DNA of 44,074 nt from IMG/VR virus record IMGVR_UViG_3300037063_000309, positions 1 to 44,074 of that record. The stretch is one strand, 5' to 3'. Within the stretch, counting starts at the first letter, position 1; each line of letters starts with the position of its first letter. This DNA is from a virus. The translations under genes and the position numbers were made by a program. Shown one piece after another: positions 21,967-43,300 of the stretch. The notes under the pieces were generated by a model. That model was given only the letters and a program-made list of their open reading frames with translations, did not search any database and was not told where the DNA came from.

Positions 21967-22506
21967 ATGGAAACCCTTGAAACCCGCCTCAACGAGGTGG
22001 CGCGGATCGCCGTGCGCCTCGAGCAACAGACCGGCTGCCCAGCCCAACTGCTGATCGCCCAGTGGGCCATCGAATCGAAGTGGGGCGAGAGGCCTGTCGG
22101 CCACGCCAACTACTTCGGCATCAAACGCGCCGAACGCCACGCGCGGTGGTGCACGGTGGCCACGGAGGAAGTCTTCACGCCGGCACAACTGGAGAAATGG
22201 AACCACCAGCACTCTGCCAGTCCCGCCCGGGTCATCACCACGCTGTCCGACGGCCGCCTGCGCGTCGAGATCTACGACGAGTTTGCAGATTACGACTCGC
22301 TGGATGCCTCCTGCCAGGATTACGTCTGGCTGATTACTAAGGGCGAGCCCTACCAACACGCCTGGCAGCAATATCAGGCCGACAGAAGCCTCATGGAACT
22401 GATCGGCGGGGTCGCCCGGATTTATGCGACCGCACCGCAATACGCCGAGCTGGCCCAAGAGATCGCCACTCAACCCAACGTCCTCAACGCAATTGCAGAG
22501 GCATAA
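21967..22506 (+). CDS. GH73-type peptidoglycan hydrolase (endolysin or tail lysin)
   Basis: This ORF encodes 179 aa from ATG 21967, preceded by TGAGGA. It carries the glucosaminidase/FlgJ-type signature: LLIAQWAIESKWGERP with the catalytic Glu36, followed by NYFGIK. A helical C-terminus (ELAQEIATQP) and no signal peptide are seen. The enzyme cuts N-acetylglucosaminyl bonds in peptidoglycan. With its place at the end of the tail genes, it may be the endolysin or a virion lysin. No holin or spanin gene follows, so release by an as yet unseen holin cannot be excluded. Confidence 0.85.
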   Translation: METLETRLNEVARIAVRLEQQTGCPAQLLIAQWAIESKWGERPVGHANYFGIKRAERHARWCTVATEEVFTPAQLEKWNHQHSASPARVITTLSDGRLRVEIYDEFADYDSLDASCQDYVWLITKGEPYQHAWQQYQADRSLMELIGGVARIYATAPQYAELAQEIATQPNVLNAIAEA

Positions 22507-22597: not shown

Positions 22598-24112
22598 ATG
22601 CCTGCTCCGGCTCCAATACGCCTCTCAAAATCCAAGTTCGTGACCGGCGTCCAGTGCTTGAAGCGGCTCTACTACCAAGTTTGCAAGCCCGAACTCGCCG
22701 AGCAGCCTGACGAGAGTCTGGTAGCGCGGCTTGAGCAAGGAAATGAAGTCGGCCTGCTCGCTCAAAGCCGATTTCCGGGCGGCGTGTTCGTTGGCACTGA
22801 ACAGGGATTGGAGGGTGCCCTGGCGCAGCCGCATTGCTTGTTGGATGATTCGTCTGTTCCTGCAATATTTGAAGCAACGTTCCAGCACCAAGGGGTTTTG
22901 GTCCGCGTAGATATCCTCCAGCGGCGCCCGGGGAACCGATGGCGGCTGATCGAAGTGAAGTCTTCTGTCGACGTGAAGGAATACCACCTCTACGATGTCG
23001 CCATCCAGACTCATGTTCTGGTGGGCTGTGGCCTCGATCTCTCCTCCAGTTGCCTCATGCACCTCAACCGCGATTACGTTTACGATGGGCGACAGTATGA
23101 TCCGGCGGAGCTCTTCACCATTCGGAACCTGACGAGGCAGATCTGGAAACTCGGTGCCGAAGTGCCGAAGTTGCTGAAGTCCGAGCGGAAGGCATTGGCG
23201 CTGGAACACCCGCCTGACATCGCGCCGGGGAGGCACTGCTCCGAACCGGTACCTTGCGAGTTCTATGATTGCTGCAATCCACCTGTGCCAGAACATCACA
23301 TTTCGTTTCTGCCGAGGCTGAGCGACAAGAAAAAAGCGGAACTGCTGGATCAGGGAATAACGCTCATCCAAGAAATCCCGGAGGGTTTCTCCCTCACGGA
23401 GAACCAGCTCCGAGTTTGGACTTCCGTGAAGACTGGACGGCTGTGGGTTAGCAACGACCTCGCCCGAGAATTGTCCCGCTTGAAGTATCCGATCTATTTC
23501 ATGGACTTCGAAACCCTATATCCGGCGATCCCACGGTTTGCTGGAATGCGGCCATACTCGCACATCCCTTTTCAATGGTCCGTTCACCGACAGATGTCTG
23601 CCGGCAGTGGATTGGAACATTTTGAATTCCTTGCTGAGGACGAAAAGGATCCTCGTCGTGCTTTCCTTGATTCGCTGAGCGACGTCCTGGCCAAGCGTGG
23701 GCTGATTGTAGCCTACAACGCTGCTTTTGAATCACAGCGTCTCAGCGATCTGGCCCACTGGATGCCGGAATGCGCCGAAAAGATCGCAAGAATTCAGGCT
23801 CGCCTGTGGGACCTTTGGCCGTTCGTGAAGAAGCACGTCTATCACCCGCAGTTTCAGGGGTCATTCTCTTTAAAAGCCGTCCTTCCGGCACTGGCACCGG
23901 GGTTTAGCTATGAAGGCATGGAGGTGTCACACGGCGACGAGGCAGGGTTGGCGTGGGACCACATGGTTCGCGGAGATCTAGACTTCGTGGTACGGCAACG
24001 TATGAAGTCCGCTCTCCTCGCTTATTGTCGACAGGACACGATGGCTATGGCGACGGTGATCGAGCGCCTAAAGGCCCTGGCTCAGGCTCGCGGCGGGGCG
24101 GGAGAGATCTGA
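22598..24112 (+). CDS. Dual-nuclease protein: RecB/Cas4-like PD-(D/E)XK plus DEDD-type exonuclease (DUF2779)
   Basis: This ORF encodes 504 aa from ATG 22598. The N-terminal ~235 residues have PD-(D/E)XK signs: E92, D105 in VRVDIL, and E119-V-K121 in LIEVKSS. They also show a cysteine set like the Fe-S cluster of Cas4/AddB nucleases, one early (C20) and three late (C214, C220 and C225/226). The C-terminal part is DUF2779-like, an RNase-H-fold exonuclease: D303 and E305 in YFMDFET, then VAYNAAFES (N374, E378) and YCRQD (D480). Two nuclease folds in one chain suggest processing of DNA or RNA ends. It is the first gene of the operon, and the last base of its stop is two bases from the next start. 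The role in defence is inferred from its neighbours. Confidence 0.85.
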   Translation: MPAPAPIRLSKSKFVTGVQCLKRLYYQVCKPELAEQPDESLVARLEQGNEVGLLAQSRFPGGVFVGTEQGLEGALAQPHCLLDDSSVPAIFEATFQHQGVLVRVDILQRRPGNRWRLIEVKSSVDVKEYHLYDVAIQTHVLVGCGLDLSSSCLMHLNRDYVYDGRQYDPAELFTIRNLTRQIWKLGAEVPKLLKSERKALALEHPPDIAPGRHCSEPVPCEFYDCCNPPVPEHHISFLPRLSDKKKAELLDQGITLIQEIPEGFSLTENQLRVWTSVKTGRLWVSNDLARELSRLKYPIYFMDFETLYPAIPRFAGMRPYSHIPFQWSVHRQMSAGSGLEHFEFLAEDEKDPRRAFLDSLSDVLAKRGLIVAYNAAFESQRLSDLAHWMPECAEKIARIQARLWDLWPFVKKHVYHPQFQGSFSLKAVLPALAPGFSYEGMEVSHGDEAGLAWDHMVRGDLDFVVRQRMKSALLAYCRQDTMAMATVIERLKALAQARGGAGEI

Positions 24113-24114
24113 TC

Positions 24115-25434
24115 GTGCTTACCGTCCCGTTTCTCACCGACATCGATCCCCAAGCTGCTGTCAAAGGTTCACGCGATCCACTAGGGCTGCAGACCATCTG
24201 GGCACGTCTGGGACGACATGTCGTCGGCAACCTGACGACCGTCAGTACGTCTGTCAGGGATTTCACCACGCTAGTACTCGGCTACTATTTTGCCGAACGT
24301 GTCGCCAACGAGGTCGGTGGCGACGGCGACCTCGCAGTCTTTCTCAGATGGGAACAGTTGGCAGCCTATTCGCGCGGAGAAATCAACGGGGACTGGAAGT
24401 TCCGCGGCGTCGACCGAGTCAAGAAGAACCTGCAGGAGGGCTCCCGCATTCGGCTTGGTACGGACTCGACCGCTCAGATCCTCAGCAATCAGAAAACCTA
24501 TGGCATTTGGGGTCTGTACACTGTACCCGCGCGGTCTTCTGGCTTGGTGGAAGGCGACCCAACTAGGCTCACTGCGGCTGGCCGTGATCTCGTCGAGACG
24601 CTATATTTACCCATCTTTTCCAAAGGCGGCCTTCGGAATGCAGACGCCGTCGTCTCGAGGCTCGCAAGGGCGAAGACGGAGCTCGATTGGCAGACGGCAG
24701 ACCGCAAGCTCCTTGAGACGGTCGCTGCAGTGTTGAATAGACGCCTGAGCACAGCTGAACGCGAGGTGTACAGGAATCATCTTCTCTTGGGTGGCCCTCA
24801 AGACAAGACTGCGGGTGGTCAAGCAATTCTCGCCAAGGCAATGGAATCAACGTTGGATGACGACGGGTGGACGCTAACGCCGGGCCACGTTCGGCACCTG
24901 GCTAAGCGATGCCGCGCAGATCCTGACAAGGGAGCAGTTGTTGCCGATCAATTGGAGCGCATCCGAACCGCCGAGCAATTATTGGCACCAGCCGCGGCCC
25001 TTTTCAGCTTGGTCCTTGCCAGCGATGATCAGACGATCGCTGACGTGTCTCGCGTGGTCAGGCGTCAGTGGGGAAACTCAGTTCGAATGATCGACGTGGA
25101 CGCAACCACTTCGCTCGAAACGGAATTGCGGGATTCTACAGGCGACGCCGAAACTGGCCGGCGATGGATTCAGGTGGCTCGCACACTGGCTTCCGGCGAA
25201 TTCGAGCGCACACTCGGCTTGCTCCTGGATCAGAACCGCGCTGTCATGAACATCCGCGCGAGTGCTGCTCCGTGGGCCGACGTTACCAACGGACGGCTTC
25301 GCGTTCGGTTCCACGATGATGATGGAGGAGATCTTCCAACGCGGTCAGAATTACCTGAGTTCTGGCGTCACTCTTACTTTCTCGATTCGTTGCGGGCTAT
25401 TGCCCTCGCCCTCAGGAGCGCGAGTCGTGCCTGA
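24115..25434 (+). CDS. Unrecognised ~439-aa protein of the defence-like operon
   Basis: The start is GTG 24115, two bases after the previous stop; the longer in-frame extension from 23953 lies wholly inside gene 1. I do not recognise the family. Residues ~35-60 (VGNLTTVSTSVRDFTTLVL) are hydrophobic-helical. Residues ~60-165 look winged-helix-like, ending in YGIWGLYTVPARSSGL and LTAAGRDLVE, with a basic patch (KFRGVDRVKKN). Residues ~190-420 are helical. No nuclease or ATPase motif is seen. It could be a DNA-sensing or adaptor subunit for the helicase and PLD protein. Its 3' end overlaps the PLD gene by eight bases. Confidence 0.75.
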   Translation: MLTVPFLTDIDPQAAVKGSRDPLGLQTIWARLGRHVVGNLTTVSTSVRDFTTLVLGYYFAERVANEVGGDGDLAVFLRWEQLAAYSRGEINGDWKFRGVDRVKKNLQEGSRIRLGTDSTAQILSNQKTYGIWGLYTVPARSSGLVEGDPTRLTAAGRDLVETLYLPIFSKGGLRNADAVVSRLARAKTELDWQTADRKLLETVAAVLNRRLSTAEREVYRNHLLLGGPQDKTAGGQAILAKAMESTLDDDGWTLTPGHVRHLAKRCRADPDKGAVVADQLERIRTAEQLLAPAAALFSLVLASDDQTIADVSRVVRRQWGNSVRMIDVDATTSLETELRDSTGDAETGRRWIQVARTLASGEFERTLGLLLDQNRAVMNIRASAAPWADVTNGRLRVRFHDDDGGDLPTRSELPEFWRHSYFLDSLRAIALALRSASRA

Positions 25435-27475
25435 ACTCCCTCCTCACGCCGTACTTTCGGAACAGATGGAAGACAGGTTACGAGGACGTCGCCTGGTCGC
25501 GGCAGTGTTCCTTACATTCCGATTCGACCCCGAGTTTTTCGAACAGGAGATTCTGCCCGTTTTTCTCGACGTGCCCCTGAGCCACGCATCCGCAATCAAA
25601 CTAGTACAACTCGAAGATGCGATGCGCTCTGTTCCGGTTGGCGTGGCCGTGTACTTCGACCAGAATGGTCTCGTGCCTGAAGCCGGCCCCTCCAAGCTTG
25701 ATGTGAAGCGCATCGCGGTTCGCCACCGAACCGGCATTTTTCACCCCAAGAACGTGTTTGCGCTCGTCGAAGACAATGATCCCGACGATGAGGGTCACAG
25801 GGCCAGGACGCTGATCGTATCTTGCCTGTCAGCTAATCTCACGCGCGCTGGTTGGTGGGAGAACGTTGAGGTGTGCCACACCGAGGAAATCATCGAAGGT
25901 GACTTCACGCGGTTGGGCGACGATTTGGTTAGGTTCCTTGAAGGACTGGAACGCCGCGTCGGAGAAAAGGATTCGGACGGCCACGAACCGCTCCGGGCGA
26001 TCCGGGATTTCGTTCGGAACACCTACCAGCGCGAGCGGCGTTCGGGGAACGGCATTCTTTACCCACATTTCTTCGAAGGGCGCACGTCTGTAACGGAATT
26101 TCTTCGTTCGGTTGCCGACCGTTCGCTCGATGGCATGAACTTGGAGATTATCTCGCCATACTTCGATGGCGGGCCCACGTCTGTACCACTTAATGACCTA
26201 ATCAACGAGTTCAGGCCGCGAGAAGTGCGGGTCTTCCTGCCGAGGGCCCACACCGGCGAGGCACTTTGTTCGCCCGAGATCTACGAGTCGGTCCGAGGCC
26301 TGCCGAATGTCAGCTGGGGCCGCATGCCTCAGGAACTGTTGCGCAGTGGAAGTGGTGAGAGCGCACGCCAGCGGATGGTTCATGCTAAGGTCTATCGATT
26401 CTTTACACCGCAACCCAAGTCCGAAGTGCTGTTCATCGGCTCGGTCAATCTCACGGCCCCGGCTCATCGGCCTGGTGGCAATCTTGAAACAGGCTTTCTC
26501 GTGGAACTGTCTCCAGCTCGACGACCCGACTGGTGGTTGATTGCTGATGCCTCGCGTCCACGGGAGTACAAACCGAGTCTCGAAGACGAAGGCAATGCCA
26601 CTGCCGGTGGCTCCAAGCTGTCGGTGAGGTTTTGGTGGAACAAGACGACGGCTGAAACGTACTGGGATGACTCGTCGGCGTCGCCGAAGCTTAACATCAC
26701 CTCGCAGGGCATCGAGATATTCTCGGTGGATGGCCTGCCACCGAAAGCATGGTGCCCCCTCCCCGCTGAGGCATACACAGAGTTGCAGCGAGTTCTTCGC
26801 TCGACATCCATCCTTACGGTTGTCGGTGATGGGAAGGAGCCTGGCTTGATTCTAGTGCAAGAGGAGGGCATGTCTCACCGTCCTTCACTTATGTTTGATC
26901 TGTCCCCAGCGGAGATTCTCCGCTATTGGTCACTACTCACAACGGCTCAGCGAGCCGCGTTCCTCGAGGCTCGGGCACCGGAGTTCGCATTGATGGGTGA
27001 AGGAGCCGCTTTGGTGTCGCGGTATGCGCCTCTCGCACAGACGCAGACGTTCTTCGAACGATTTGCGGGCATCTTTCTGGCATTCGGAAATGTTGAACGA
27101 AGCGTCCGTTCCGCCCTCCGCGAGGGCCGTGGGCGTGAGGCCACGTATCGACTGTTCGGGCAGAAGTACGATTCGCTCGGCAGCCTCCTGAAGAGAGTCC
27201 TCAAAGACAGCACGGCCGGGGAGGGCGACCTCGTCGATCACTACGTGATCGTTATGTGCGCTCAGCAACTTGTACAGGAGCTCCGCCGGGAGCAGTGTGA
27301 GTTTTGGCGGGAGCATGCATCGGACGGGAAGTGCTTGCAGGAGCAACTCGGCGTCGCTGCATCCTTGCGTGAACGCCTAATTGCCAGTGATCGTGCTGAG
27401 ATGCCGGCTTTTCTAGATTGGTTCGACCGATGGTTCTTGCAGCGGGCAACGCCCGTCGTGACGGAGGCCCGTTGA
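25427..27475 (+). CDS. Phospholipase-D-superfamily protein, putative nuclease of the defence-like operon
   Basis: This ORF encodes 682 aa from GTG 25427, preceded by AGGAG nine bases upstream; a longer frame from 25262 overlaps gene 2 too deeply. Two PLD half-sites are visible: FHPK (His106) followed by SANLT (~135-139), and MVHAKVY (His319) followed by GSVNLT (338-343). The downstream Asp of the classic HKD motif is not evident, and the layout with Asn instead recalls the HKN motif of Tdp1. This fits a single-chain enzyme with both active-site halves. PLD nucleases pair with helicases in DISARM (DrmC) and other defence systems. The C-terminal ~330 residues match nothing I know and may contact the helicase. 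The gene ends in a TTGA overlap with the helicase gene. Confidence 0.85.
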   Translation: MPELPPHAVLSEQMEDRLRGRRLVAAVFLTFRFDPEFFEQEILPVFLDVPLSHASAIKLVQLEDAMRSVPVGVAVYFDQNGLVPEAGPSKLDVKRIAVRHRTGIFHPKNVFALVEDNDPDDEGHRARTLIVSCLSANLTRAGWWENVEVCHTEEIIEGDFTRLGDDLVRFLEGLERRVGEKDSDGHEPLRAIRDFVRNTYQRERRSGNGILYPHFFEGRTSVTEFLRSVADRSLDGMNLEIISPYFDGGPTSVPLNDLINEFRPREVRVFLPRAHTGEALCSPEIYESVRGLPNVSWGRMPQELLRSGSGESARQRMVHAKVYRFFTPQPKSEVLFIGSVNLTAPAHRPGGNLETGFLVELSPARRPDWWLIADASRPREYKPSLEDEGNATAGGSKLSVRFWWNKTTAETYWDDSSASPKLNITSQGIEIFSVDGLPPKAWCPLPAEAYTELQRVLRSTSILTVVGDGKEPGLILVQEEGMSHRPSLMFDLSPAEILRYWSLLTTAQRAAFLEARAPEFALMGEGAALVSRYAPLAQTQTFFERFAGIFLAFGNVERSVRSALREGRGREATYRLFGQKYDSLGSLLKRVLKDSTAGEGDLVDHYVIVMCAQQLVQELRREQCEFWREHASDGKCLQEQLGVAASLRERLIASDRAEMPAFLDWFDRWFLQRATPVVTEAR

Positions 27476-30366
27476 TCGACTTGACCGCTGCTCGCCAGTT
27501 GCTCGACTTTGGCGCCCGCATTGGGCAAGGTCCTCGCGCGGAGGAACAGCTCGAGGGAGCCGTGGCAATCCATAACATTTTGGAGAAACAAAGAGTTGCG
27601 TACCTCGCCGACGAGGTTGGCATGGGCAAGACCTACGTGGCACTTGGTGCCCTGGCACTGTTTCGCCACTTTCAACCCAACTTTCGGGCGCTTGTAATTG
27701 CCCCAAAGGAGAATATCCAGCGCAAATGGATGAAGGAGTTCCGAAACTTCGTCGCATACAATATCAAGTTTCCCGATCTCCGGGTGGCCACAATCGATCG
27801 GCAGCCCGCGCGGCCGCTCGTAGCCTGCGACAACTTGATGGCGTTCGTCCGTGAGGTGGTGGTTGATCCAAAACGCGATTTTTTTCTACGGCTGAGTTCG
27901 TTCAGCTTGGCTCTTGGAGACGACGCGGAGCGACGAGGTTGGAAACGGGTTCGCGACGAGCTGCGACAGGAAGTGCCATGGCTAGCCGATGCAACGCTCG
28001 ATCTTCGGAGCAATAAGGATCTTTTCAAGGATAATTTCGCGAGGGCCGTCTGTTGTGCGCTACCGGTATTCGACCTGGTTATCGTGGATGAAGGGCACAA
28101 CCTCAAACACGGTTTCAAGGTCGGTGTCGCGGCCAGGAACCGGGTTCTAGCCTTAGCGTTCGGCCATCCCTCCGAGCACGAGGCCAAACGCGAGCTTCCT
28201 GGATACGGACCACGTGCCAACCGTGTGCTGTTTTTGTCGGCGACACCGCTCGAGGAGACCTACACGCACGTCTGGAACCAGCTAGATGTTTTTGGATTAG
28301 GCGGGAATTTTGACGGGTTGCGGGACGAGAAGTTAAGCGAGGATCAGAGGAAGCAGGCTGCAGCAAAGTTCATTGTTCGTCGTGTGACCACGATGCGTGT
28401 CGGCGGCGAGGACCTGACGAAGAATCAGTACCGCCGCGAGTGGCGGCATGGAGGCGTTCACAAATACGACGAGCCTATCGGCAGGGGCGATGATCGTCAG
28501 CGCCTGGTCGTGGCGCTTGTTCAGAAGAAAGTGGCCGAACTCCTCGGATCAGAGAAGTTCGGTATGTCGTTCCAGATCGGAATGCTCGCCTCGTTCGAAA
28601 GTTTCTTGGAGACGACTCGCCTGAAGCGAGCCGTCGACGATGGTGCTAACTTCGATGACGCGGACCAGACGGCTGACGTGAAGGACGAAACTCTCCGGAT
28701 GGCCGCGCGGGAGGGCATTGATGTGCGTGACGTCAATCGCTTGGCCCGAAACTACAGAGACATTTTCGGAAAAGAAATGCCGCACCCGAAGATGGATGCC
28801 CTTGTTGAGTCCCTCAAGAACGCCTGGACGACTGGGAAGAAGGCCCTCATCTTCGTTCGGCGTGTTAAGTCTGTTGAGGAGCTAAAACGCAAGCTCGATG
28901 GTGAGTACAACTCCTGGCTGATTGGAACTCTGCGAGAACGGCTCCCGCAAAGCGCCAATGCGCGTTTCGATGAAGTTGTAAAGACGTACCAGGAGGAAAA
29001 GAGAGAGGCTGAGGCAGCACGACGGGTGCGCTCGACAGCCGCCCAGACGGCGGGCACTTCGGAAGGTGATCTGGACATTGATGATCGCGGTGGCACCGAT
29101 ACCTTCTTCGCTTGGTTTTTCCGCGGTGAAGGTCCAAAGGGCGTAGTCAGCGGTGCAAACGTTCAACGGCGCTTTATCCAAAAAGGGACTGTGTACTCGA
29201 CCTTTTTTGAAGACAACTACGTCATGGATCTCCTGGGTGCCAGACCAGGTGGCGTGACGGACGCCTTGGGCAAGACGCTTCGGTTGGAGTCTCACCAGTT
29301 GCGGAACGAGCTTAGCCGGCGTGCTGCGAAGTACATAGGTCGCGCGAAACGGCTTCAGCGAGCAGATCGTATGGAGGCTGCTCAAGCGGCTGCTCTCGAG
29401 CTGCTGAGAGAGCGGCAAGACGTCTTGGGAGAGAGAGCGCGAATTATCTGGCACGAGCGGTTCGAGAACTCGATTCGAAGGGGCTCTGTGAGCGAAGCCC
29501 CGGACGTTTCTGAAGGGCTCGAACATGCGACGTTCTTTACGGAGTTGAGGAGGGCAGATCGTTCAGAGCTGCGGAACGCACTTTGGCCAGCCCCTCGTCC
29601 CGGGTCCGTGCGTGAGCAATTTCGCGAGCAACAGCAGCGAGCTCAGATGCTGGAAACGGCGGCGCGCCTTGGACACTCGCTCATTGATCTCTACATCCTG
29701 ACGATCCACCGGATCGGAAGCCTCGAGCAGCGAACCCTCGAAGTCGAGAGCGGTGAAGAGAGTGCTGTCCTGGAACGCCGCCGCATTGACGAATATCTCG
29801 ACGTCCTGGAGAAACAGCGCGCTACACCTCTTGGCGACCGAAGCTGGGCGGCCTTCGACGAACTCGAACAGATAGCTGCGAACTTCGATTTGATCCTCGA
29901 TGTGAATGCCCCAGATGTTCGGACTCAGAAACTCGCGGAGAGCAGGCGCGACCTTGGATCGATTCTCGGCGAACAGCAGCCGGTGGGTGGGATGTCCGGC
30001 CAGGTGAACCGAAGACTAGTCCAACAGTTCCGTATGCCAGGCTATCCGTTCGTTCTGGTCACGACAGATCTTTTGCAGGAAGGAGAGGATCTGCATACGT
30101 TTTGCTCTGCCGTACACCATTACGGCATCGCCTGGACGCCGTCGTCCATGGAGCAGCGTATAGGACGAATCGACCGTGTGCGTTCACTGTCAGACAGGCG
30201 TTTGTCCGGCACGGAAGCTATTCGAGATGGTGCAGATCTTCTCCAGGTTTACTACCCATATCTCGATGACACTGTGGAGGTCCTTCAGGTACAGCTCGCT
30301 CTCGAACGGATGAACACGTTCCCACGAGGGTCTGTCCGTTCCGAAGGGCGATCATCGCCGAGTTGA
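27472..30366 (+). CDS. SNF2-family helicase/ATPase of the defence-like operon
   Basis: This ORF encodes 964 aa from TTG 27472. This start overlaps the PLD stop (TTGA) and has GGAGG just upstream; ATG 27430 is the alternative. Motifs are clear: Walker A GMGKT (about residues 50-54), DEGH (206-209), LSATP (255-259), and the late-lobe set LLQEGEDLH then QRIGRIDR (895-902). The lobes are separated by a long helical insertion (~480-800) and a large spacer after motif III, as in SNF2/RapA-type translocases. It probably moves along DNA and feeds or positions the nucleases of the operon. DrmD of DISARM is also a SNF2-like enzyme with similar motif spacing, but its partners differ. The reading frame of the next gene overlaps the end. 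Confidence 0.88.
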   Translation: MIDLTAARQLLDFGARIGQGPRAEEQLEGAVAIHNILEKQRVAYLADEVGMGKTYVALGALALFRHFQPNFRALVIAPKENIQRKWMKEFRNFVAYNIKFPDLRVATIDRQPARPLVACDNLMAFVREVVVDPKRDFFLRLSSFSLALGDDAERRGWKRVRDELRQEVPWLADATLDLRSNKDLFKDNFARAVCCALPVFDLVIVDEGHNLKHGFKVGVAARNRVLALAFGHPSEHEAKRELPGYGPRANRVLFLSATPLEETYTHVWNQLDVFGLGGNFDGLRDEKLSEDQRKQAAAKFIVRRVTTMRVGGEDLTKNQYRREWRHGGVHKYDEPIGRGDDRQRLVVALVQKKVAELLGSEKFGMSFQIGMLASFESFLETTRLKRAVDDGANFDDADQTADVKDETLRMAAREGIDVRDVNRLARNYRDIFGKEMPHPKMDALVESLKNAWTTGKKALIFVRRVKSVEELKRKLDGEYNSWLIGTLRERLPQSANARFDEVVKTYQEEKREAEAARRVRSTAAQTAGTSEGDLDIDDRGGTDTFFAWFFRGEGPKGVVSGANVQRRFIQKGTVYSTFFEDNYVMDLLGARPGGVTDALGKTLRLESHQLRNELSRRAAKYIGRAKRLQRADRMEAAQAAALELLRERQDVLGERARIIWHERFENSIRRGSVSEAPDVSEGLEHATFFTELRRADRSELRNALWPAPRPGSVREQFREQQQRAQMLETAARLGHSLIDLYILTIHRIGSLEQRTLEVESGEESAVLERRRIDEYLDVLEKQRATPLGDRSWAAFDELEQIAANFDLILDVNAPDVRTQKLAESRRDLGSILGEQQPVGGMSGQVNRRLVQQFRMPGYPFVLVTTDLLQEGEDLHTFCSAVHHYGIAWTPSSMEQRIGRIDRVRSLSDRRLSGTEAIRDGADLLQVYYPYLDDTVEVLQVQLALERMNTFPRGSVRSEGRSSPS

Positions 30367-30493
30367 CGTCAGTCGCGAACTGGTCGATGGCCGTCGAACG
30401 GTCGAAGCAATTCGCGGGCGGCTCCAAAGTGCGTTTCCGATACCCGGTTGGGCGCTTCACGGAGAACGGCAGTCGCTGGCGACTGACGCCGAC

Positions 30494-30982
30494 ATGGTGG
30501 CAGCCGTGCTCGATCGGTTCGAAAGGCTGTCAGTGTCTGAATACTCTGGGCTGCCAATTGAATGGGAGCCATACTCGCGGAACGGCACCTTGCTGGGCAC
30601 AGTGACGCTTGCAACCGGCCGCATCCAACCTTTTGCCCTCCTGCTAAAATCCGATGGCGAACGCCTGGTTGTCAGGTGTGTGAGCCCCATCGGGCGTGTG
30701 GAACCCGAATCGACGATGGCGGCCGTTGAGGAAAGCGCAAGGATGCGCCGGGTGAGACTCGGAGCAATTCTCGGGCGAGACGAGGCCCTTTACGATCTCA
30801 CCGTCGAGGATGACGTATTGCTGACGGACCCGTCTCAAGACATCGCACGAATAACGGTCCTCTTGAACCGTGTCGTTGAGCAATCCGACATGCTTGAGCA
30901 AATTCATCTTCCGATGCTAGACCAGCCGATGGCTACTTTCGAATCGGATCTCGAGCGGGAAGGAGACGCCGACCGTGGCTGA
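30494..30982 (+). CDS. Small YbjN-like protein; real start uncertain
   Basis: The coding frame is open from 30314, but its first ATG is 30494, 127 bases after the helicase stop. The 60 codons before contain no ATG, GTG or TTG, yet read like protein (RELVDGRRTVEAIRGRLQ, then FPIPGWALHGERQ). I annotate the minimal 162-aa form. TTG 30363, overlapping the helicase TGA, is in another frame, so one lost or added base early in the gene would explain the picture. The part from ~30590 on, 'IQPFALLLKSDGERLVVRCVSPIGRVEP', and the helix 'ARITVLLNRVVEQSDMLEQIH' resemble the YbjN/type III secretion chaperone-like fold, which often acts as an adaptor. It overlaps the next gene by eight bases. Confidence 0.6.
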   Translation: MVAAVLDRFERLSVSEYSGLPIEWEPYSRNGTLLGTVTLATGRIQPFALLLKSDGERLVVRCVSPIGRVEPESTMAAVEESARMRRVRLGAILGRDEALYDLTVEDDVLLTDPSQDIARITVLLNRVVEQSDMLEQIHLPMLDQPMATFESDLEREGDADRG

Positions 30983-31349
30983 TTGGAGGCAATTCTGCCG
31001 TGGCGAGGAAGGAATATCCATCGATGGGGACGCAGTCGAAGTTGTTACGACCGCAGAACGGCATCAACGCATCGCAGTTCGTGAGTCCACCGAAACGTTT
31101 GAACTAACCGGCATCGTTGCCCGTCCATCTGCGATCGACGGTATTACAAACGTTGCGCTCCGAGTCTGGCGTCGCAACCGGGCGATGCAACTAGTGGGGT
31201 TTAGGCTCGACCAGAAAGGTCGGCTTGTCGGCGAAGCATGGGTACCAAAGGCGGGCCTGACCCGGGACGAGTTCCTGCTCTATGTCAAGCGCGTCGCAGA
31301 CGAGTGCGACCTCTTCGAGTATCATTTGACGGGTAAAGACCGAGAGTAG
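30975..31349 (+). CDS. Small YbjN-like protein, last gene of defence-like operon
   Basis: This ORF encodes 124 aa from GTG 30975, inside the end of the previous gene, with GGGAAGGAGA nearby. The second half, LVGFRLDQKGRLVGEAWVP and then LLYVKRVADECDLFEYHLTG, has the beta-hairpin plus long-helix pattern of YbjN-like/type III chaperone-like proteins, as in the preceding ORF. Residues 1-40 are an acidic lead-in. The two neighbours probably form a dimer or pair that binds a partner in the operon. No enzymatic motif is present. A 540-base stretch without a convincing gene follows. Confidence 0.65.
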   Translation: MADWRQFCRGEEGISIDGDAVEVVTTAERHQRIAVRESTETFELTGIVARPSAIDGITNVALRVWRRNRAMQLVGFRLDQKGRLVGEAWVPKAGLTRDEFLLYVKRVADECDLFEYHLTGKDRE

Positions 31350-31888
31350 GCTGCAGCCGAGACTCTCAGCCCGCGTCGATGTACTGACATTGTATTGTCC
31401 ATGCTGGGGCAAACCACCAATTTGAGTAGCCCATTTAGAATCAATGTTTTTGCCAGTGTCTCTCGACCGTCAAATACCCTTTGTTTCACTTGGGGAGCCA
31501 ATTCTTCCCACCCCGGAATTCAAGTCCCCTGTTGTTAACAGCATCGCCGTTCCTACGCCCGCCACTCGGCGTCGCGTTTTCCTCAACATAGCCATGGGTT
31601 TGCGGTGAATGCCGCCTCTCTGCGGCAGGCCTCGGAGATTCTCCGTTTGCGCCCCGGTGAGTCCACGGGCGCGAGTTTCCTGCCGACCTCTCCTCTTCTC
31701 CGCAGGGTGCCCCGCCTTATTTAACAGCCCGGTTCGTCTCGACCGACGTGGGTGTGTACAACTTTCGGAATTCTTGCGTATGTTTACAGCGGGAGAAGCG
31801 CACGCTGATCCCATATCCCACCGGACAGCGGAACGACCGCCAGGCGGACAACGCTGTGGGTGCCAAATCCACAGCGAGGTGATCCGTC
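31350..31888. other. Non-coding spacer before the recombinase module
   Basis: No convincing gene is seen here. ORFs on both strands (31609-31986 plus, 31470-32003 minus) have arginine/proline-rich translations, no ribosome-binding site, and overlap each other. The stretch has two short hairpins: TGCCGC-CTCTCT-GCGGCA at 31610-31627 and CGGAG-ATT-CTCCG at 31633-31645. The second is followed by TTTG and might weakly terminate the upstream operon. A promoter for the recombinase module likely lies before 31870, but none is clear. Confidence 0.5.
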
Positions 31889-32077
31889 TTGGCTGTTCCG
31901 AGCGAAGAACTGCAATCCATCGCCAGCATCCTGGCCGCCGGCTACCTGCGATACCGCCGCAGAATCCGGCGCGAAGAACCACTTGATAACCCGGCCACTT
32001 CAAGCCCTCATGGACACGAGGTTAACGGTCCAGAGAAAGGAGAAGGCCTTGGAGACCACGGTCCGAAAAGAGATTGA
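31889..32077 (+). CDS. Small protein leading the recombinase module
   Basis: This ORF encodes 62 aa from TTG 31889, supported by GAGGTGAT five bases upstream, the best ribosome-binding site in this stretch. It starts MAVPSEELQSIASILAAGYLRYRRRI and ends hydrophilic (SSPHGHEVNGPEKG). Such short ORFs with an 'AGYLR' helix occur before DUF2924 genes in Acidobacteriota as far as I recall. This is a weak recollection. The end overlaps the DUF2924 start by 29 bases, suggesting coupling. Confidence 0.6.
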   Translation: MAVPSEELQSIASILAAGYLRYRRRIRREEPLDNPATSSPHGHEVNGPEKGEGLGDHGPKRD

Positions 32078-32567
32078 AGCATTGCGCCACATGACGTTGG
32101 GCCAACTGAAAGAGAAGTACGCCGAGGCGTTCGGCGAGGAGACGCGCTCCCACCACAAGCACTTCCTGTTCCGCCGCGTTGCCTGGAGGATTCAGGCGCT
32201 GGCAGAGGGCGGTCTGTCGGAACGGGCGCGCCGCCGCGCCCTGGAGATCGCCAACGACGCCGACCTGCGCGTCCGTGCGCCGAAAACGACGTTCCAGCAA
32301 GACTTCAGCCTGTCGTCCGCCAGCGCAGTGAAGGGGCGCGTGACCGCCGAAGCTGATCCGCGATTGCCCGCGACCGGCGGTACTGTTGAACGCCGCTACA
32401 AGGGCCGGGACATCGTCGTGAACGTCCGGGATGAGGGCTTCGAGTACGACGGGAAGCTCTACAAATCGTTGAGCGCGATTGCCCTCGAGGTGACCGGCAC
32501 CAAGTGGAATGGCTTCCTCTTCTTCGGGTGCGCGGCGGACAACGGGGGAACGAATGAAGAACGGTAG
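32049..32567 (+). CDS. DUF2924 protein
   Basis: This ORF encodes 172 aa from TTG 32049, preceded by AAAGGAG at six bases. ATG 32010 is an alternative but lacks a site. It contains 'MTLGQLKEKYAEAFGEETRSHHKHFLFRRVAWRIQALAEGG' in pieces, the mark of DUF2924 (N-terminal ~90 residues), and then a basic, less conserved half ending in 'GTKWNGFLFFG'. The latter 'G.......G......S.LA..VTGT.WNGF.FFG' piece is a typical DNA-related RAMA-like tail, with 'YDGKLYKSLSAIALEVTG'. DUF2924 genes are regularly found directly before large serine recombinases. The stop overlaps the recombinase start by 14 bases. The likely job is a DNA-binding partner of the recombinase. Confidence 0.88.
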   Translation: METTVRKEIEALRHMTLGQLKEKYAEAFGEETRSHHKHFLFRRVAWRIQALAEGGLSERARRRALEIANDADLRVRAPKTTFQQDFSLSSASAVKGRVTAEADPRLPATGGTVERRYKGRDIVVNVRDEGFEYDGKLYKSLSAIALEVTGTKWNGFLFFGCAADNGGTNEER

Positions 32568-34140
32568 CGGCAGGCGCGCGCCGGCGGCCGCGCCGGAACC
32601 TGCGTCGGACAAGGTGATCCGGTGCGCGATCTACACGCGGAAGTCCACAGAGGAAGGCCTCCAGCAGGACTTCAGCTCATTGGACGCGCAGCGGGAGGCC
32701 GGCGAGGCCTTCATCGCGAGCCAGCGGAATGAGGGATGGCAGTTGGTGCCGGAGCGGTTCGACGATGGCGGCTTCACCGGCGGCAATATGGACCGACCAG
32801 CCCTAAAGCGCCTTCTCGCAGCCATTGAGGCTGGTCGCGTGAACTGCGTGGTCGTCTACAAGGTGGACCGGCTGAGCCGATCCCTGATGGACTTCGCCCG
32901 GATGATGGAGTTGTTCGACCGCTGCGGTGCCAGCTTCGTCTCGGTCACGCAGCAGTTCAACACGATCAACTCCCTGGGCCGGTTGACGCTCAACATCCTG
33001 CTTTCATTCGCTCAGTTCGAACGGGAACTGATCTCGAAGCGGACCCGCGACAAGATGTGTGCCGCGCGCAGGAAGGGCAAGTGGATCGGCGGGCACCCGG
33101 TGCTCGGCTACGACATCGACACCAAGGCGCGCCGCCTCGTCGTGAATCCGGATGAAGCGCACCAGGTGCGGACCATCTTCGATCAATACCTCGAACTTGG
33201 TGCCATGTTGCCTGTCCTGCAGGACTTGGACGGGCGCGGCTGGCAAACGAAACGGTGGACAACCGAGGCTGGCCAGACACGGGGTGGTAAGGCCTTCACC
33301 AAGAGTCTGCTGTACGGGGTCCTCACGAACGCCATCTACACCGGCCAGGTGAATCACAAAGGCACTCTCTTTCCCGGCGAGCACGAGGCGATCATCGAAC
33401 GCGCCACATGGGAACGGGCTCAGGACATGCTCGACAGCAACGGCCGCACGAACGGTGGCGGTGCCAAAAACAAGTACGGCGCTCTCCTGCGCGGACTGCT
33501 TTTCTGCGTGCCATGCGGCACCGCGATGGTGCACACCTACTCGGTCAGAGGTTCCAAGCGTTACCGTTACTACGTCTGTTACAACGCCCAGCAACGCGGT
33601 TGGAAAAACTGCAAGACGAAATCCGTGTCCGCCCAGGCCGTCGAGAACGTGGTGCTGGCCGCCATCCGGGGGCTTGGCTCTGAACAGCTGTGGGCGGCGG
33701 AAGTGGTGCGCCAGGCGCGTGAGCACCTGGCGCACCGTCGGGAGGAGCACGGTAGGGACGTCGCCGTCGCCGAGGCCGCGCTCCGACGTCTGAACGCCGA
33801 GGTCACGGCGCTTGCCGGCGACGCCGTGATCAGTTCCACCGCACGCGTGGACCGGTTGTTGGATCTGCAGGGACAGATTCAGGCTGCCGAGCACCGACTG
33901 GCCGATCTCATCACAGAAGGGCGGGAACTCGAGGCCGACCAGTTCGACGATGCCGACGCCGTGCGTGCGCTCGCGGAATTTGACCCGGTGTGGGCGTCAC
34001 TGACCACGCGCGAGCAGATCCGGCTGGTCCAGTTGCTGGTCGCCAAGGTTGGCCTTGACGGCCGCACCGGCAAGGTGACGGTGGACTTCCGCTCAGCAGG
34101 GATCAGGGACCTGTGCAACGGGGCAACACCGAAAGCCTGA
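32554..34140 (+). CDS. Large serine recombinase (integrase-type)
   Basis: This ORF encodes 528 aa from ATG 32554; an in-frame upstream extension to 32509 lies in DUF2924. The N-terminal resolvase domain has YTRKSTEEG with Ser31 as nucleophile and the 'VVYKVDRLSRSL' and 'QFERELISKRTRDKM' parts. The 'Recombinase' domain follows (~210-290: 'AIYTGQVNHKG'), then a zinc ribbon (LLFCVPCG then YYVCYN..QRGWKNC) and a coiled coil (~400-460) with an 'AVRALAEFDPVWASLTTREQIRLV' ending. It is a member of the enzymes that insert or excise phages and islands. It could have integrated this prophage or be part of the DUF2924-type module. The next gene overlaps by one base. Confidence 0.93.
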   Translation: MKNGSGRRAPAAAPEPASDKVIRCAIYTRKSTEEGLQQDFSSLDAQREAGEAFIASQRNEGWQLVPERFDDGGFTGGNMDRPALKRLLAAIEAGRVNCVVVYKVDRLSRSLMDFARMMELFDRCGASFVSVTQQFNTINSLGRLTLNILLSFAQFERELISKRTRDKMCAARRKGKWIGGHPVLGYDIDTKARRLVVNPDEAHQVRTIFDQYLELGAMLPVLQDLDGRGWQTKRWTTEAGQTRGGKAFTKSLLYGVLTNAIYTGQVNHKGTLFPGEHEAIIERATWERAQDMLDSNGRTNGGGAKNKYGALLRGLLFCVPCGTAMVHTYSVRGSKRYRYYVCYNAQQRGWKNCKTKSVSAQAVENVVLAAIRGLGSEQLWAAEVVRQAREHLAHRREEHGRDVAVAEAALRRLNAEVTALAGDAVISSTARVDRLLDLQGQIQAAEHRLADLITEGRELEADQFDDADAVRALAEFDPVWASLTTREQIRLVQLLVAKVGLDGRTGKVTVDFRSAGIRDLCNGATPKA

Positions 34141-34568
34141 TGATGACTATGCAAACGAAAGACGGAGAATTACACGCAGCCCAGGTCGAAATGATGCTAT
34201 CGGGCTGGACTCCGCGGGTGCGGGAACAAACCGACCCTTCGCGGACCCCGCCGCCCGCTCGACTGCCCCGGATCACCCGCCTGATGGCTCTCGCTATCAA
34301 GTTCCAGGATATGGTGGACCGTGGCGAGGTCCGCGACTACGCCGACATCGCGCGCCTTGGGTACGTGACCAGAGCCAGAATCACTCAAATTATGAACCTG
34401 CTTCATTTGGCGCCGGAGGTTCAAGAGGAGATACTGTTCCTCAAGAGCGCTCCGTCAGAGCGATCGCTGCGTCCGCTGACTGTCCAACCCTTTTGGGACC
34501 AACAGATCCGGCTTTGGCGTCGATTCACACAGCAAACACCTTCAGAACCTCGTCGCCGTAGTGGTTGA
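34140..34568 (+). CDS. Small helix-turn-helix protein behind recombinase
   Basis: The 142-aa form starts at ATG 34140, in a TGATG overlap with the recombinase stop. The middle contains 'YADIARLGYVTRARITQIMNLLHLAPEVQEEILFL', an HTH of the type found in ParB/KorB-like proteins, and the tail is basic. This slot after recombinases of the DUF2924 type often encodes such a protein, which may direct the recombinase or regulate it. The last 44 bases overlap the end of the convergent methyltransferase gene. Confidence 0.75.
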   Translation: MMTMQTKDGELHAAQVEMMLSGWTPRVREQTDPSRTPPPARLPRITRLMALAIKFQDMVDRGEVRDYADIARLGYVTRARITQIMNLLHLAPEVQEEILFLKSAPSERSLRPLTVQPFWDQQIRLWRRFTQQTPSEPRRRSG

Positions 34569-37305
34569 TGACCTTGACCGCGATCTTGCCCGTCTTCGGC
34601 TTGGGAAAGGGGCGGCTGGTGGTTGAGTAGATCGCGGACCAGGCGGCCTCGTCCACGTCAGCCTTTAACGCGCGCTTCAGCTTTTCGTACGGCTGGTCGG
34701 CGCCTGTAAAGTAGGCGTGGCGGACGAAGAAGCTCTCACCGTTGTACTGGGTGTCGATGAACCAGCAGGCGATGTCGTCGGTCGAGTGGCTGCGGATCTG
34801 CTGAGTTGTCGGATCGTAGACGTCGACGCCGCGGACGGTCACCTGGATCGCGCCATCCTTCAGATGCTTCAGGTCGACGTCCGGCTCGCCGAACACCATG
34901 AAGAGGTTCCCAGTGCCCGTCTTCTTAAGGAGCTCATCGCCCATCAGGAGGTCCGGATTCATCTTGGCTGGCAAGACCTGGAGCCGTCCGTAGCGCTTCA
35001 CCTCTTCGGACACGTGCGGATCGAAGGCGAACCCGCACACCACCAGGACATCGTGGCCGAGCCCCTGGACGGCTTCTTTGGCTGCCTCTTTGACCAGGTC
35101 CGGGCCCACGGTTCCGTACTGCGGACCGATGCAGACCGCCACCCGCAGGCATTTGCCGTCCGGTCCGGTGAACTCGCCGGCCGCGTGCAGATAGACTCCG
35201 GCAAAGGGATCGAGCCGGTCGAACTTGAGGCGTTCGTTCTTGACCGTGTTCTGGACGCCGGCCTTCCGCAAGTTGTCCAGAATCACGTTGACGAACTGCC
35301 CGGCGTTGTCTTCCCGCTCGCCGGAGGCCTCGGACTGCGGCCGATCCTCGTCCGTCGATAGCACGCGGTGCGGCGACAGGCTCTCCACTGTGAACGGCCC
35401 ACTCACGCGGATTCGTTTGGAATCCTCATAGGGCTGATCGTAGAGAAACTCCCTTTCCGCCCGGCGTGTGATCGAGTCGTCAATATCCTTCTGGCGCGTG
35501 CGCCTAAGTTGCCGCCACTCTTCGTGGGCCTTTCGCGCCTGCGCGGTCCAGGAGGGATCGGCGTCGCGCGGCACTTCCCAGTCTTGCCAGTCGCGCTTCG
35601 TGAGCCGGTTCAGGTTCGCACGCAATGCCTCGAGTTGTCCCTGATAGCGCGCTTGGATGGCGTCGATCTCTCCGTTTTGCGCGATCGACTTCAGTGTGAT
35701 ATGCGGAACACGCTTGAAGACGAAGCCTTTGCGGACATCATTCTGCGGGCTGGAAGCGGTGTGCGGCGGTATGCCGGTAACCTCAGCTTCTTTCTGTATG
35801 CCGTCGGCTGAGTCGGCGAGTACGTAATAAGAGTACTTGGCCGCCATGATCCTCGTGCGAGCGAGCGCGAGTGCGACTCGACTGGTGTCGGTCGTGATCC
35901 AGCGGCGCCCCCATTGCTCCGCGACATATGCGGTTGTGCCGGATCCGCATGTTGGGTCCAGCACCAGGTCGCCGGGATCGGTAGCCATCAATAGGCAGCG
36001 CTGAACTATCGACGATGCGGTCTGCACAACGTAGTTCTTGTCAGCGGCTCCACCAACATCAGACCAGAGATTGGCCAGTGGAAATGCAGGAAAGTCTTCA
36101 AAGAACCTGACGTAGCGGGGCGTCTTCCCGACGAGTGCAATACGGTTGGCCACAAGCAGTCGCTGGATGCCGTCTCCGTTTGTTTTCCATTCACCCGTAC
36201 CGGGCAGATACTGCGATCCGTGGATGAGGATCGGGAAATAGCCGGTCCTGGCTTCGCGAACTCTAGACGAGGTCAGGCCGCCAGTCCCGAATGCCCGTGC
36301 TCCTTCCGGAAGGTTCTCTCCGCCCAATTCCTCACGCGTCATGACCCTTCGGATGCCATCCTGCAATTCAACTTGAGTGTAAAGGGCGCCGCCTGCGCCG
36401 CCAACCTCCTTTTGGCGAAACAATTGACGGTACTTCACGGCCTCTTTGACTTTGGCAAACCACAGCAAGTAGTCGCAGGTGCCGGGGAGAAAGGCCCCAG
36501 TTGTGCCCGTTGTCGTCGAAAATGCGATCTGGGCCATGAAGTTCTCACTGCCGAACACTTCGTCCAAGACGTTCCTCGCGAGGTGCACATTCTCATCACC
36601 AATCTGGACAAAAACGCTACCGCTGTCGGTTAGCAGATCGCGGGCTGCAACCAAGCGATCCCGCAAATAGGCGAGGTAGGAGTGAATGCCCAGTTCCCAG
36701 GTATCACGGAACGCCCGGATCTGTTCTGGTTGGCGTGTGAGGTCCTCCAATTTGCCGTCTTTGACATCGCGTCTTCTCGTCGATACCTGCCAGTTGGAGC
36801 CGAACCTGATTCCGTAAGGGGGGTCCATATAGATCATCTGGACCTTGCCCTTCAATCCTTCCTTCTCCGCGAGGGATGCCATGACCAGCAGTGAGTCGCC
36901 GAGAATCATCCGGTTCGACCAGTTTTGGCCGTGGTGGTAGAACTCGATGTAATCCTCGAACTTGATCCCGTTGAAGTCTGCGAAGAGCGATGCCTGCGCC
37001 TCGGCCTTGTTCCCTGCGGCATGGGCGCGCAGGTCTTCGATCAGCGCCTGCGGGTGGATCTTCTCCTGGATGTAGATCGGGACCACGGGGACGGTCAGGT
37101 CCTCGGCATCCTGTTCGTCCTTGCCTTTCCAGACCAGTTGCGGATCGAGCGACGGGTCACGCGGATACAGCATCGTCTTCGGTGCCTTTTCATCGGAAGC
37201 CACGAAGTCGCGCAGTTCCTCGGTCGGAATATTCGACCGCTGGTCCTTGTGGCGGATCGAATCCACCGATGCTGTTTCCTTTGCCTTCTTTGTTTTCGTC
37301 GCCAT
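34525..37305 (-). CDS. mod: DNA adenine methyltransferase, type III-like Mod subunit
   Basis: This ORF encodes 926 aa. Motif IV DPPY is at ~161-164 (IYMDPPYGIRF) and motif I 'LDPTCGSGTTAY' is later, the order of beta-class N6-adenine/N4-cytosine methyltransferases, to which type III Mod proteins belong. A ~400-residue C-terminal part (after ~550) carries alternating beta/alpha elements (GKCLRVAVCIGPQYG, HDVLVVCGFAFDPHV) that recall a nucleotide- or target-recognition domain. Such long Mod versions pair with Res-like helicases. This one is the fourth gene of an operon with Res, TcmP and DUF5131. It is transcribed towards the recombinase module, overlapping its last gene at the tail. Confidence 0.88.
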   Translation of the reverse strand: MATKTKKAKETASVDSIRHKDQRSNIPTEELRDFVASDEKAPKTMLYPRDPSLDPQLVWKGKDEQDAEDLTVPVVPIYIQEKIHPQALIEDLRAHAAGNKAEAQASLFADFNGIKFEDYIEFYHHGQNWSNRMILGDSLLVMASLAEKEGLKGKVQMIYMDPPYGIRFGSNWQVSTRRRDVKDGKLEDLTRQPEQIRAFRDTWELGIHSYLAYLRDRLVAARDLLTDSGSVFVQIGDENVHLARNVLDEVFGSENFMAQIAFSTTTGTTGAFLPGTCDYLLWFAKVKEAVKYRQLFRQKEVGGAGGALYTQVELQDGIRRVMTREELGGENLPEGARAFGTGGLTSSRVREARTGYFPILIHGSQYLPGTGEWKTNGDGIQRLLVANRIALVGKTPRYVRFFEDFPAFPLANLWSDVGGAADKNYVVQTASSIVQRCLLMATDPGDLVLDPTCGSGTTAYVAEQWGRRWITTDTSRVALALARTRIMAAKYSYYVLADSADGIQKEAEVTGIPPHTASSPQNDVRKGFVFKRVPHITLKSIAQNGEIDAIQARYQGQLEALRANLNRLTKRDWQDWEVPRDADPSWTAQARKAHEEWRQLRRTRQKDIDDSITRRAEREFLYDQPYEDSKRIRVSGPFTVESLSPHRVLSTDEDRPQSEASGEREDNAGQFVNVILDNLRKAGVQNTVKNERLKFDRLDPFAGVYLHAAGEFTGPDGKCLRVAVCIGPQYGTVGPDLVKEAAKEAVQGLGHDVLVVCGFAFDPHVSEEVKRYGRLQVLPAKMNPDLLMGDELLKKTGTGNLFMVFGEPDVDLKHLKDGAIQVTVRGVDVYDPTTQQIRSHSTDDIACWFIDTQYNGESFFVRHAYFTGADQPYEKLKRALKADVDEAAWSAIYSTTSRPFPKPKTGKIAVKVINHYGDEVLKVFAV

Positions 37306-37311
37306 GCTGTT

Positions 37312-38070
37312 TCACCCGCACGCTGTTTCGAGGATCGGGAAGTCCTCGACCGAAGGCGTGTTACCTCGCGGCATTTCATCCCATGTGCGGCCATCCAGAA
37401 TACGGCCCGTGCGGCTCTTGAGGACACCGCCCCACTGCTTGAAGAAAAACGGAACGCGCGCACGCAGGCACTGGTCGCGGATCTCTCGCACCCATTGCGG
37501 GTCCATGGGGCGGGCACCAGGCCCGGACTCTCCCCCCACAATCACCCAATCGATACCGCGCAGATTGAGCTTGCGTATCGAACCCAACAGCGGCTCGATC
37601 GATAGGAACTTCACGTGTGCCGCCGTGCGCCTCAGGTGGTCGATTCGGAAAACGTAGTCGTCGTTTTCCACGCTGACGCCCATCCAGATGTGCGGCCGCC
37701 ACGCGAGAAACGGGCTCAGTTGCAGCAGCCGTTCGGATCGCTTCGTCAGCAACTGGTACTGGTGCCAGTCGGCGCGCCCCATCACGTCAAAGACCTGCTG
37801 GACGTAGCTGAGGGGCACGTCCTCGTGGAAAAGGTCGCTCATGGAATTCACGAAGACCCGATTCGGGCGCTTCCACTTCAAGGGCAGTTCCAGCATGTGC
37901 GGCTGAAGCGTGAGCCGGAAGCCGTTAACGTAGTTCCGCTGTCCCATGGCTTGCAGACGCTTCGCCAGCCGCTCGGCGTAGCAGTGCTTGCAGGCCGGGC
38001 TGATCTTAGTGCATCCGGTGACAGGATTCCAAGTGGCATCCGTCCATTCGATGTGAGAGTTGCCGGCCAT
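37312..38070 (-). CDS. DUF5131 / phage Gp37-Gp68-like three-Cys protein
   Basis: This ORF encodes 252 aa. A cluster C20-X6-C27-X2-C30 ([18 protein letters not shown]) looks like a radical-SAM-type metal site with the 'CKHCYA' core. The middle has '[16 protein letters not shown]' and '[14 protein letters not shown]', and the end '[14 protein letters not shown]', all hallmarks of the Gp37/Gp68 family. Family members are found in phages and beside TcmP proteins, hence the name 'three-Cys motif partner'. Chemistry is unknown. The start overlaps the TcmP stop by one base, six bases separate it from Mod. Confidence 0.9.
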
Positions 38071-43232: not shown

Positions 43233-43245
43233 CGTAACGCACGGA

Positions 43246-43300
43246 TCCTTTCGTTGCGCAACCCATAACAAAACTATACACCACTTTCCTTTCGTTACGC
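43246..43300. promoter_or_regulatory. Pair of 14-bp direct repeats flanking the Fic promoter region
   Basis: TCCTTTCGTTGCGC at 43246-43259 and TCCTTTCGTTACGC at 43287-43300 differ at one base and are 41 bp apart, about four helical turns. Between them, the minus strand has TATAGT and TTGTTAT, promoter-like AT-rich pieces in a GC-rich background. The winged helix of the Fic protein is the obvious candidate ligand. This is inferred, not shown. Confidence 0.5.

What the first reader, a model, noticed from the sequence alone, without database searches (positions are those of the whole stretch)
22598..31349. Candidate undescribed multi-nuclease defence system: DUF2779/RecB nuclease, unknown protein, PLD, SNF2 helicase and two YbjN-like proteins
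Six plus-strand genes overlap or abut (2-base gap, 8-base overlap, TTGA overlap, a blurred junction, 8-base overlap). The set has three nuclease active sites (PD-(D/E)XK, DEDD, PLD), one SNF2 motor, one unknown winged-helix-like protein and two small adaptor-like proteins. PLD plus SNF2 also occurs in DISARM, but here no methylase or DUF1998 gene is present in this operon, so self DNA would have to be recognised in another way. I do not know a named system with this gene set. Neighbouring defence genes and recombinase fit a defence island or prophage cargo.
Basis: partly seen in the sequence, partly recalled or inferred. Interest (0 to 1): 0.92.

Follow-up and report, generated by a model that had tools for sequence, protein, structure and literature searches.

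The report
PLD–SNF2 defence operon, PDC-M27/Azaca-like variant
A prophage of a bog acidobacterium carries an operon coding for a DNA motor and a nuclease that is a divergent relative of an already catalogued candidate anti-phage system; it is a variant with extra chaperone-like parts rather than a wholly new six-gene system, and the copy in this window has a broken helicase gene.

Summary
The operon is real, but the gene list needs correcting. The core is three genes: an all-helical protein of unknown fold (24115-25434), a bilobed PLD nuclease (25427-27475) and a SNF2 helicase (from 27472). All three hit PADLOC's candidate system PDC-M27 (A 8e-19, B 1e-9, C 7e-78); B and C also hit Azaca (ZacB, ZacC). 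Gene 6 is real: a YbjN-like protein present after the helicase in all seven Acidobacteriota relatives read to that end, fused to it in one. The helicase tail is also predicted to have the YbjN/type-III-secretion-chaperone fold. The DUF2779 nuclease is not core: it is absent beside nine of ten related loci checked and usually solitary, though it sits near two other PLD-SNF2 loci. I read the operon as a divergent PDC-M27/Azaca-like, methylase-free motor-plus-nuclease defence system with added chaperone-fold domains, carried between the lysin and integrase of a prophage. Defence function is inferred, not tested. New variant of a known kind; moderate interest.

The parts
22598..24112 (+). Gene 1: DUF2779 nuclease, 504 aa: Cas4/RecB-like PD-(D/E)XK domain with four invariant Cys plus RNase H-like DEDD-type exonuclease domain. 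Optional neighbour, not core.
   Evidence: Pfam DUF2779 6.6e-41 and RNase_H_2; Cas4 model 7e-5; catalytic residues invariant in 11 homologues; absent beside relatives of the core; 84% identical paralogue at another locus of the same genome
24115..25434 (+). Gene 2 (A): 439-aa mostly alpha-helical protein of unknown fold; PDC-M27A relative
   Evidence: PADLOC PDC-M27A 7.9e-19, all 6 homologues match; AF2 mean pLDDT 80.6; no PDB or viral fold match with E<=0.001
25427..27475 (+). Gene 3 (B): 682-aa bilobed PLD-superfamily nuclease; ZacB/PDC-M27B relative
   Evidence: PADLOC ZacB 2.7e-14, PDC-M27B 1.4e-9; both H-x-K half-sites invariant
27472..30366 (+). Gene 4 (C): SNF2/RapA-like helicase, truncated here by the frameshift to 964 aa with an out-of-frame tail; 1173 aa in two near-identical copies
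   Evidence: PDC-M27C 6.9e-78, ZacC 7.9e-20; intact ORF in L001/L002
30322..30323 (.). Site of the 11-bp deletion in the window relative to IMGVR 3300048823_000350 and the Bryobacterales MAG
30494..30982 (+).
   Evidence: one frame with the helicase in L001/L002 and in every relative; alpha-beta3-alpha-beta2-alpha model; YbjN, AmyR, DR_1245, ExsC and SigE among the top PDB folds
30975..31349 (+). Gene 6 (D): 124-aa YbjN-like protein, constant partner of this subfamily
   Evidence: present 3' of the helicase in L016-L019 and L036-L038, fused in L016; Pfam YbjN in 5 of 8 members, best 6.4e-7, 0.00098 for this one (below the Pfam cut-off)
32509..34140 (+). Large serine integrase of the prophage; the cargo lies between the lysin (21967-22506) and this gene
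   Evidence: PHROG integrase 2.7e-113; endolysin 1.4e-24; portal, head protease, major head protein

Best explanation
This is a divergent, chaperone-domain-bearing relative of the three-gene candidate defence system PDC-M27 (itself related to Azaca), carried as cargo by a prophage of an acidobacterium (Bryobacterales). I think it works as a methylase-free motor-plus-nuclease complex. The SNF2 helicase engages or translocates on DNA. The PLD protein, with two half-sites forming one active site, is the cleaving effector. The alpha-helical A protein is a regulatory, DNA-binding or sensing subunit. The YbjN/T3SS-chaperone-fold domains (helicase tail and D) bind a protein or peptide, either a phage product or the nuclease held inactive, and set when the nuclease is released. 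Shown: gene content, homology, conserved catalytic residues, purifying selection, constant A-B-C-D order in Acidobacteriota, prophage location, and the frameshift in this copy. Inferred: defence function, complex formation, DNA as target, the sensor role of the chaperone-fold parts, and that self is spared by a trigger rather than by methylation. The DUF2779 nuclease is most likely an independently mobile defence-island nuclease that landed upstream.
For: PADLOC hits for all three core proteins. The conserved block A-B-C(-D) recurs in Acidobacteriota genomes (L016, L017, L018, L019, L036, L037; L038 with a shortened A) at 33-76% identity with the same order and short junctions; a more distant A-B-C is in MT835507. 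Authentic PDC-M27 loci on Rhodoferax and Vibrio plasmids align to all three proteins at about 22-36% identity over parts of their length. Catalytic motifs invariant. dN/dS about 0.1. Chaperone-fold prediction and YbjN hits. Prophage context: portal, protease, capsid, lysin and integrase in the window, and host genes such as leuB beyond the prophage in the MAG contig (the host-gene names there are read from sequence, not searched). Other defence genes next door: type III-like R-M with TcmP/DUF5131, and SoFic.
Against: No paper on PDC-M27 was found in the library I could search, so no phage-resistance data are known to me, and nothing was assayed here. The similarity to PDC-M27B and ZacB is partial (about half of the protein). 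No ZacA model was hit. A has no recognisable fold, so its role is a guess. The PLD half-sites lack the usual Asp, and nuclease activity is untested. YbjN fold matches are modest (Foldseek E about 0.005-0.02, TM about 0.4-0.6).
Confidence: 0.72

Rival explanations
1. One reading: a new six-gene (really five-gene) multi-nuclease system in which the DUF2779 nuclease is an integral third effector.
For: Gene 1 ends 2 bases before gene 2 on the same strand. DUF2779 also lies one WYL gene upstream of an authentic PDC-M27 on a Rhodoferax plasmid, and an 84% identical copy in the same genome lies tail to tail with another PLD-SNF2 operon.
Against: No DUF2779 beside the core in L003, L016-L019, L036, L038, MT835507 or the Vibrio plasmid. 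Homologues in the order are mostly solitary (19 of 257 genomes have one; the nine neighbourhoods read show no core genes). On a Diaphorobacter plasmid it sits with an ATPase and a WYL regulator and no PDC-M27, so the Rhodoferax case may be two adjacent cassettes.
Confidence: 0.15
2. A DNA-repair or anti-plasmid/genome-maintenance module rather than anti-phage defence: a RapA-like SNF2 motor plus a PLD enzyme and YbjN-like partner (DR_1245 of Deinococcus, a YbjN relative, partners the ssDNA-binding protein DdrB).
For: The helicase's only solved relatives by sequence are RapA. The DR_1245 fold is among the top matches. The DdrB partnership is stated in the title of a paper cited in PMC9503650.
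Against: Sparse occurrence (5 of 396 and 5 of 399 genomes), location on a prophage next to R-M and SoFic genes, and relatives on plasmids next to other defence genes speak for accessory defence, not housekeeping.
Confidence: 0.1
3. A decaying cargo: the copy in the window is a non-functional allele (compatible with the best explanation for the intact copies).
For: 11-bp deletion splitting the helicase; A is cut short in the nearest relative L038 and broken in L003, as expected for costly or self-toxic defence genes.
Against: Two near-identical copies are intact. The deletion could be an assembly artefact, since the deleted form is found in no other viral contig. The cut falls at a domain boundary, so the motor is intact and the tail domain could in principle be made separately, although no clear ribosome-binding site precedes ATG 30494.
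Confidence: 0.35

Closest known systems
PDC-M27 (PADLOC-DB 2.0 multi-gene phage defence candidate 27)
   Same: Three genes A-B-C in the same order; all three proteins hit the models; PLD second, SNF2 helicase third
   Different: Only about 22-36% identical, over parts of the length, to authentic members; helicase about 1170 aa instead of about 870, with a C-terminal chaperone-fold domain that matches no PADLOC model; extra gene D
Azaca (ZacA-ZacB-ZacC)
   Same: B and C hit the ZacB (2.7e-14) and ZacC (7.9e-20) models; Azaca is listed with a PLD-like domain (PMC10952713) and a ZacC helicase (PMC12278908)
   Different: A does not hit any ZacA model; helicase scores PDC-M27C far higher
DISARM
   Same: SNF2 helicase (DrmD-like, 2e-14) and PLD protein (DrmC-like, 0.014)
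   Different: Scores far below the NCBIfam equivalog cut-offs (53 of 610 and 18 of 133 bits); no DrmA/DrmB-type proteins or methylase in the operon
Dpd / BREX helicases (DpdE, BrxH)
   Same: Shared RapA/SNF2 helicase core
   Different: No 7-deazaguanine or BREX core proteins among the operon proteins scanned; distant scores only
DUF2779 nucleases (RNase H-like family F.17)
   Same: PD-(D/E)XK plus RNase H-like domains, predicted 3'-5' exonuclease (PMC3985635)
   Different: Here directly upstream of a PLD-SNF2 module; usually solitary or with an ATPase and WYL gene

Membership tests
PDC-M27 | A protein matching PDC-M27A | tested here: met
   7.9e-19; 6 of 6 homologues
PDC-M27 | B protein (PLD) matching PDC-M27B | tested here: met
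   1.4e-9, partial coverage 17-311/635; 6 of 6 homologues
PDC-M27 | C protein (SNF2 helicase) matching PDC-M27C | tested here: met
   6.9e-78; 6 of 6 homologues
PDC-M27 | PADLOC's system rule and score/coverage thresholds satisfied | not testable with these tools
   rules and thresholds not available; scores are far below those of authentic members such as Rhodoferax
Azaca | ZacA present | tested here: not met
   no ZacA hit for any of 6 A homologues at E<=1
Azaca | ZacB and ZacC present | tested here: inconclusive
   significant but partial hits
DISARM | DrmD and DrmC at curated cut-offs | tested here: not met
   53.5 of 610 and 18.2 of 133 bits
DISARM | DrmA and DrmB (DUF1998) and a DNA methylase in the operon | tested here: not met
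   none among the operon proteins scanned; the methylase at 34525-37305 belongs to a type III-like R-M set on the other strand
Anti-phage defence system | protects a host from phage | not testable with these tools
   needs a plaque assay

The most novel reading that the evidence does not exclude
The operon founds a distinct defence type in which a SNF2 motor carries a type-III-secretion-chaperone-fold (YbjN-like) domain, plus a second one as a separate subunit, that senses a phage protein or holds the PLD nuclease inactive. This would be a trigger-based, methylation-independent way to tell self from phage DNA.
Probability: 0.3. Interest if true: 0.65.

Novelty: new variant of a known kind. Interest (0 to 1): 0.42.

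Why it matters
It widens a catalogued but, as far as I could find, mechanistically uncharacterised family of PLD-SNF2 candidate systems, shows one carried by a prophage in soil Acidobacteriota, and points to a testable idea: chaperone-fold domains attached to a DNA motor as the infection sensor in systems that lack a protecting methylase. It also warns that a 'gene' in a metagenomic window can be a frameshift product.

Tried and rejected
Six-gene system: rejected because gene 5 is the helicase tail and gene 1 is absent from relatives. Winged-helix protein: AF2 gave a mainly helical model (pLDDT 80.6) with no match in PDB or BFVD with E<=0.001. DISARM: far below cut-offs. Sequence-level relation between the helicase tail and gene 6: hhalign found nothing (probability 1.4%), so their likeness is at predicted fold level only. 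Relatives in viral contigs: only one near-identical contig. Plasmid search with A or PLD: no match; with the helicase: Rhodoferax, Vibrio and a fragment in Komagataeibacter. PDC-M27 in the literature: no paper found. Promoter scan: no excess and no plus-strand site, uninformative for this host. The L035 PLD-SNF2 operon was tested as a member of this family: its 442-aa first protein is unrelated to A.
Full report
What the window is. The window is an IMG/VR virus record. It is identical to IMG/VR contig 3300048823_000350 over 32,871 bases apart from one 11-bp deletion, and nearly identical to a contig of a Bryobacterales (Acidobacteriota) bog MAG. Portal, head protease, major head protein, lysin and a large serine integrase are recognisable. 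Beyond the window's left end the MAG contig runs through a phage primase into what read as ordinary host genes, so this is most likely an integrated prophage. The operon lies between the lysin (21967-22506) and the integrase (32509-34140).

Checking the operon. The window lacks 11 bp after base 30322. No other viral contig has the deleted form, one has the intact form. Whether this is a real variant or an assembly error cannot be settled without reads. The motor domain is complete in the window, and the cut falls between the motor and the tail domain.

What the core is. Gene 2 hits PDC-M27A (7.9e-19), gene 3 hits ZacB (2.7e-14) and PDC-M27B (1.4e-9), gene 4 hits PDC-M27C (6.9e-78) and ZacC (7.9e-20). 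All six homologues scanned give the same picture. Authentic PDC-M27 operons on Rhodoferax and Vibrio plasmids score 1e-172 to 0 on the same models. They are only about 22-36% identical to this one over parts of the proteins, and their helicases stop at about 870 aa. The window's operon therefore belongs to a separate, divergent branch. Its helicase tail and gene D match no PADLOC model.

How constant the gene set is. Searches of about 400 genomes each in the phylum and in the class found the A gene in five genomes per search, including the MAG itself. Where the DNA could be read, A-B-C-D is in that order in L016, L017, L018, L019 and L036; L037 starts inside A at a contig edge; L038, the closest, has A cut to about 125 aa. 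D follows the helicase in all seven and is fused to it in L016 (1408-aa ORF). In MT835507 (L006) the 1253-aa helicase also ends in a D-like stretch. Selection is purifying. DUF2779 is next to none of these. Within the order 19 of 257 genomes have a DUF2779 homologue, and nine neighbourhoods read show no core genes. Two things keep the association alive: an 84% identical paralogue in the same genome sits tail to tail with another PLD-SNF2 operon, and on the Rhodoferax plasmid DUF2779 lies one WYL gene upstream of PDC-M27. On a Diaphorobacter plasmid the ATPase-DUF2779-WYL set occurs without PDC-M27, so I treat DUF2779 as an independent defence-island nuclease.

Protein by protein. The DUF2779 protein has a PD-(D/E)XK site, four invariant Cys (as in the iron-sulphur Cas4/AddB nucleases, from general knowledge) and a DEDD-type site; the family is predicted to be a 3'-5' exonuclease (PMC3985635). 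A is helical, conserved at its N-terminal KGSxDPLG and QILSNQK-type motifs, and has no structural match. B has two H-x-K...S-x-N half-sites. C is RapA-like. The C tail is modelled as alpha-beta3-alpha-beta2-alpha at mean pLDDT 71.6, and YbjN, AmyR, DR_1245, ExsC and SigE are among its best PDB matches; the E-values are modest. D hits Pfam YbjN, best 6.4e-7 in a homologue. Related chaperone-fold proteins have been proposed as peptide-binding parts of other conflict systems (TY-chaperones, PMC9503650).

How it probably works. A SNF2 motor next to a PLD nuclease and no methylase suggests restriction triggered by an infection cue and not by missing methylation. The chaperone-fold parts are the natural candidates for binding that cue or for restraining the nuclease. 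This is inference; only the anatomy is shown.

Verdict. What is new is the chaperone-fold tail, the D subunit, and the prophage carriage in Acidobacteriota.

Noticed in passing
window 34525-41866 (-): A type III-like restriction-modification set: MTase (PADLOC MTase_III, E=0), BPTD_3080-family endonuclease (1202.7 bits), with TcmP and DUF5131 proteins between them that match PADLOC candidate PDC-M41.
   Followed up: partly
window 42060-43349 (-): SoFic-type Fic protein (PADLOC 9e-122), another defence-associated gene beyond the integrase.
   Followed up: no
L035 3345-9309 (same genome, contig C149): A second, different PLD-SNF2 operon (442-aa protein unrelated to A, 631-aa PLD protein, 933-aa helicase) tail to tail with an 84% identical DUF2779 gene; it fits no single PADLOC system clearly.
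   Followed up: partly
L066 3736-8350, L069 5733-10467, L070 5495-9476: DUF2779 repeatedly next to an ATP-binding protein (IetA-like, 2.6e-40, in L066) and a WYL-domain gene on plasmids: a possible separate defence cassette.
   Followed up: partly
L038 5148-5531; L003 1790-2487: The A gene is cut short in the closest relative (about 125 aa, PLD following at once) and frameshifted in another, so the A gene is lost or broken more than once.
   Followed up: partly
L006 (MT835507): Deposited as 'Bacteriophage sp.', but the stretch reads like a bacterial defence island (recombination nuclease-like, Sir2, WYL, AAA genes, MotA/OmpA-like pair); probably a mislabelled bacterial contig.
   Followed up: no
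window 31860-32567: 235-aa protein of PHROG 11806 (unknown function, 9.6e-37) overlapping the start of the serine integrase ORF.
   Followed up: no
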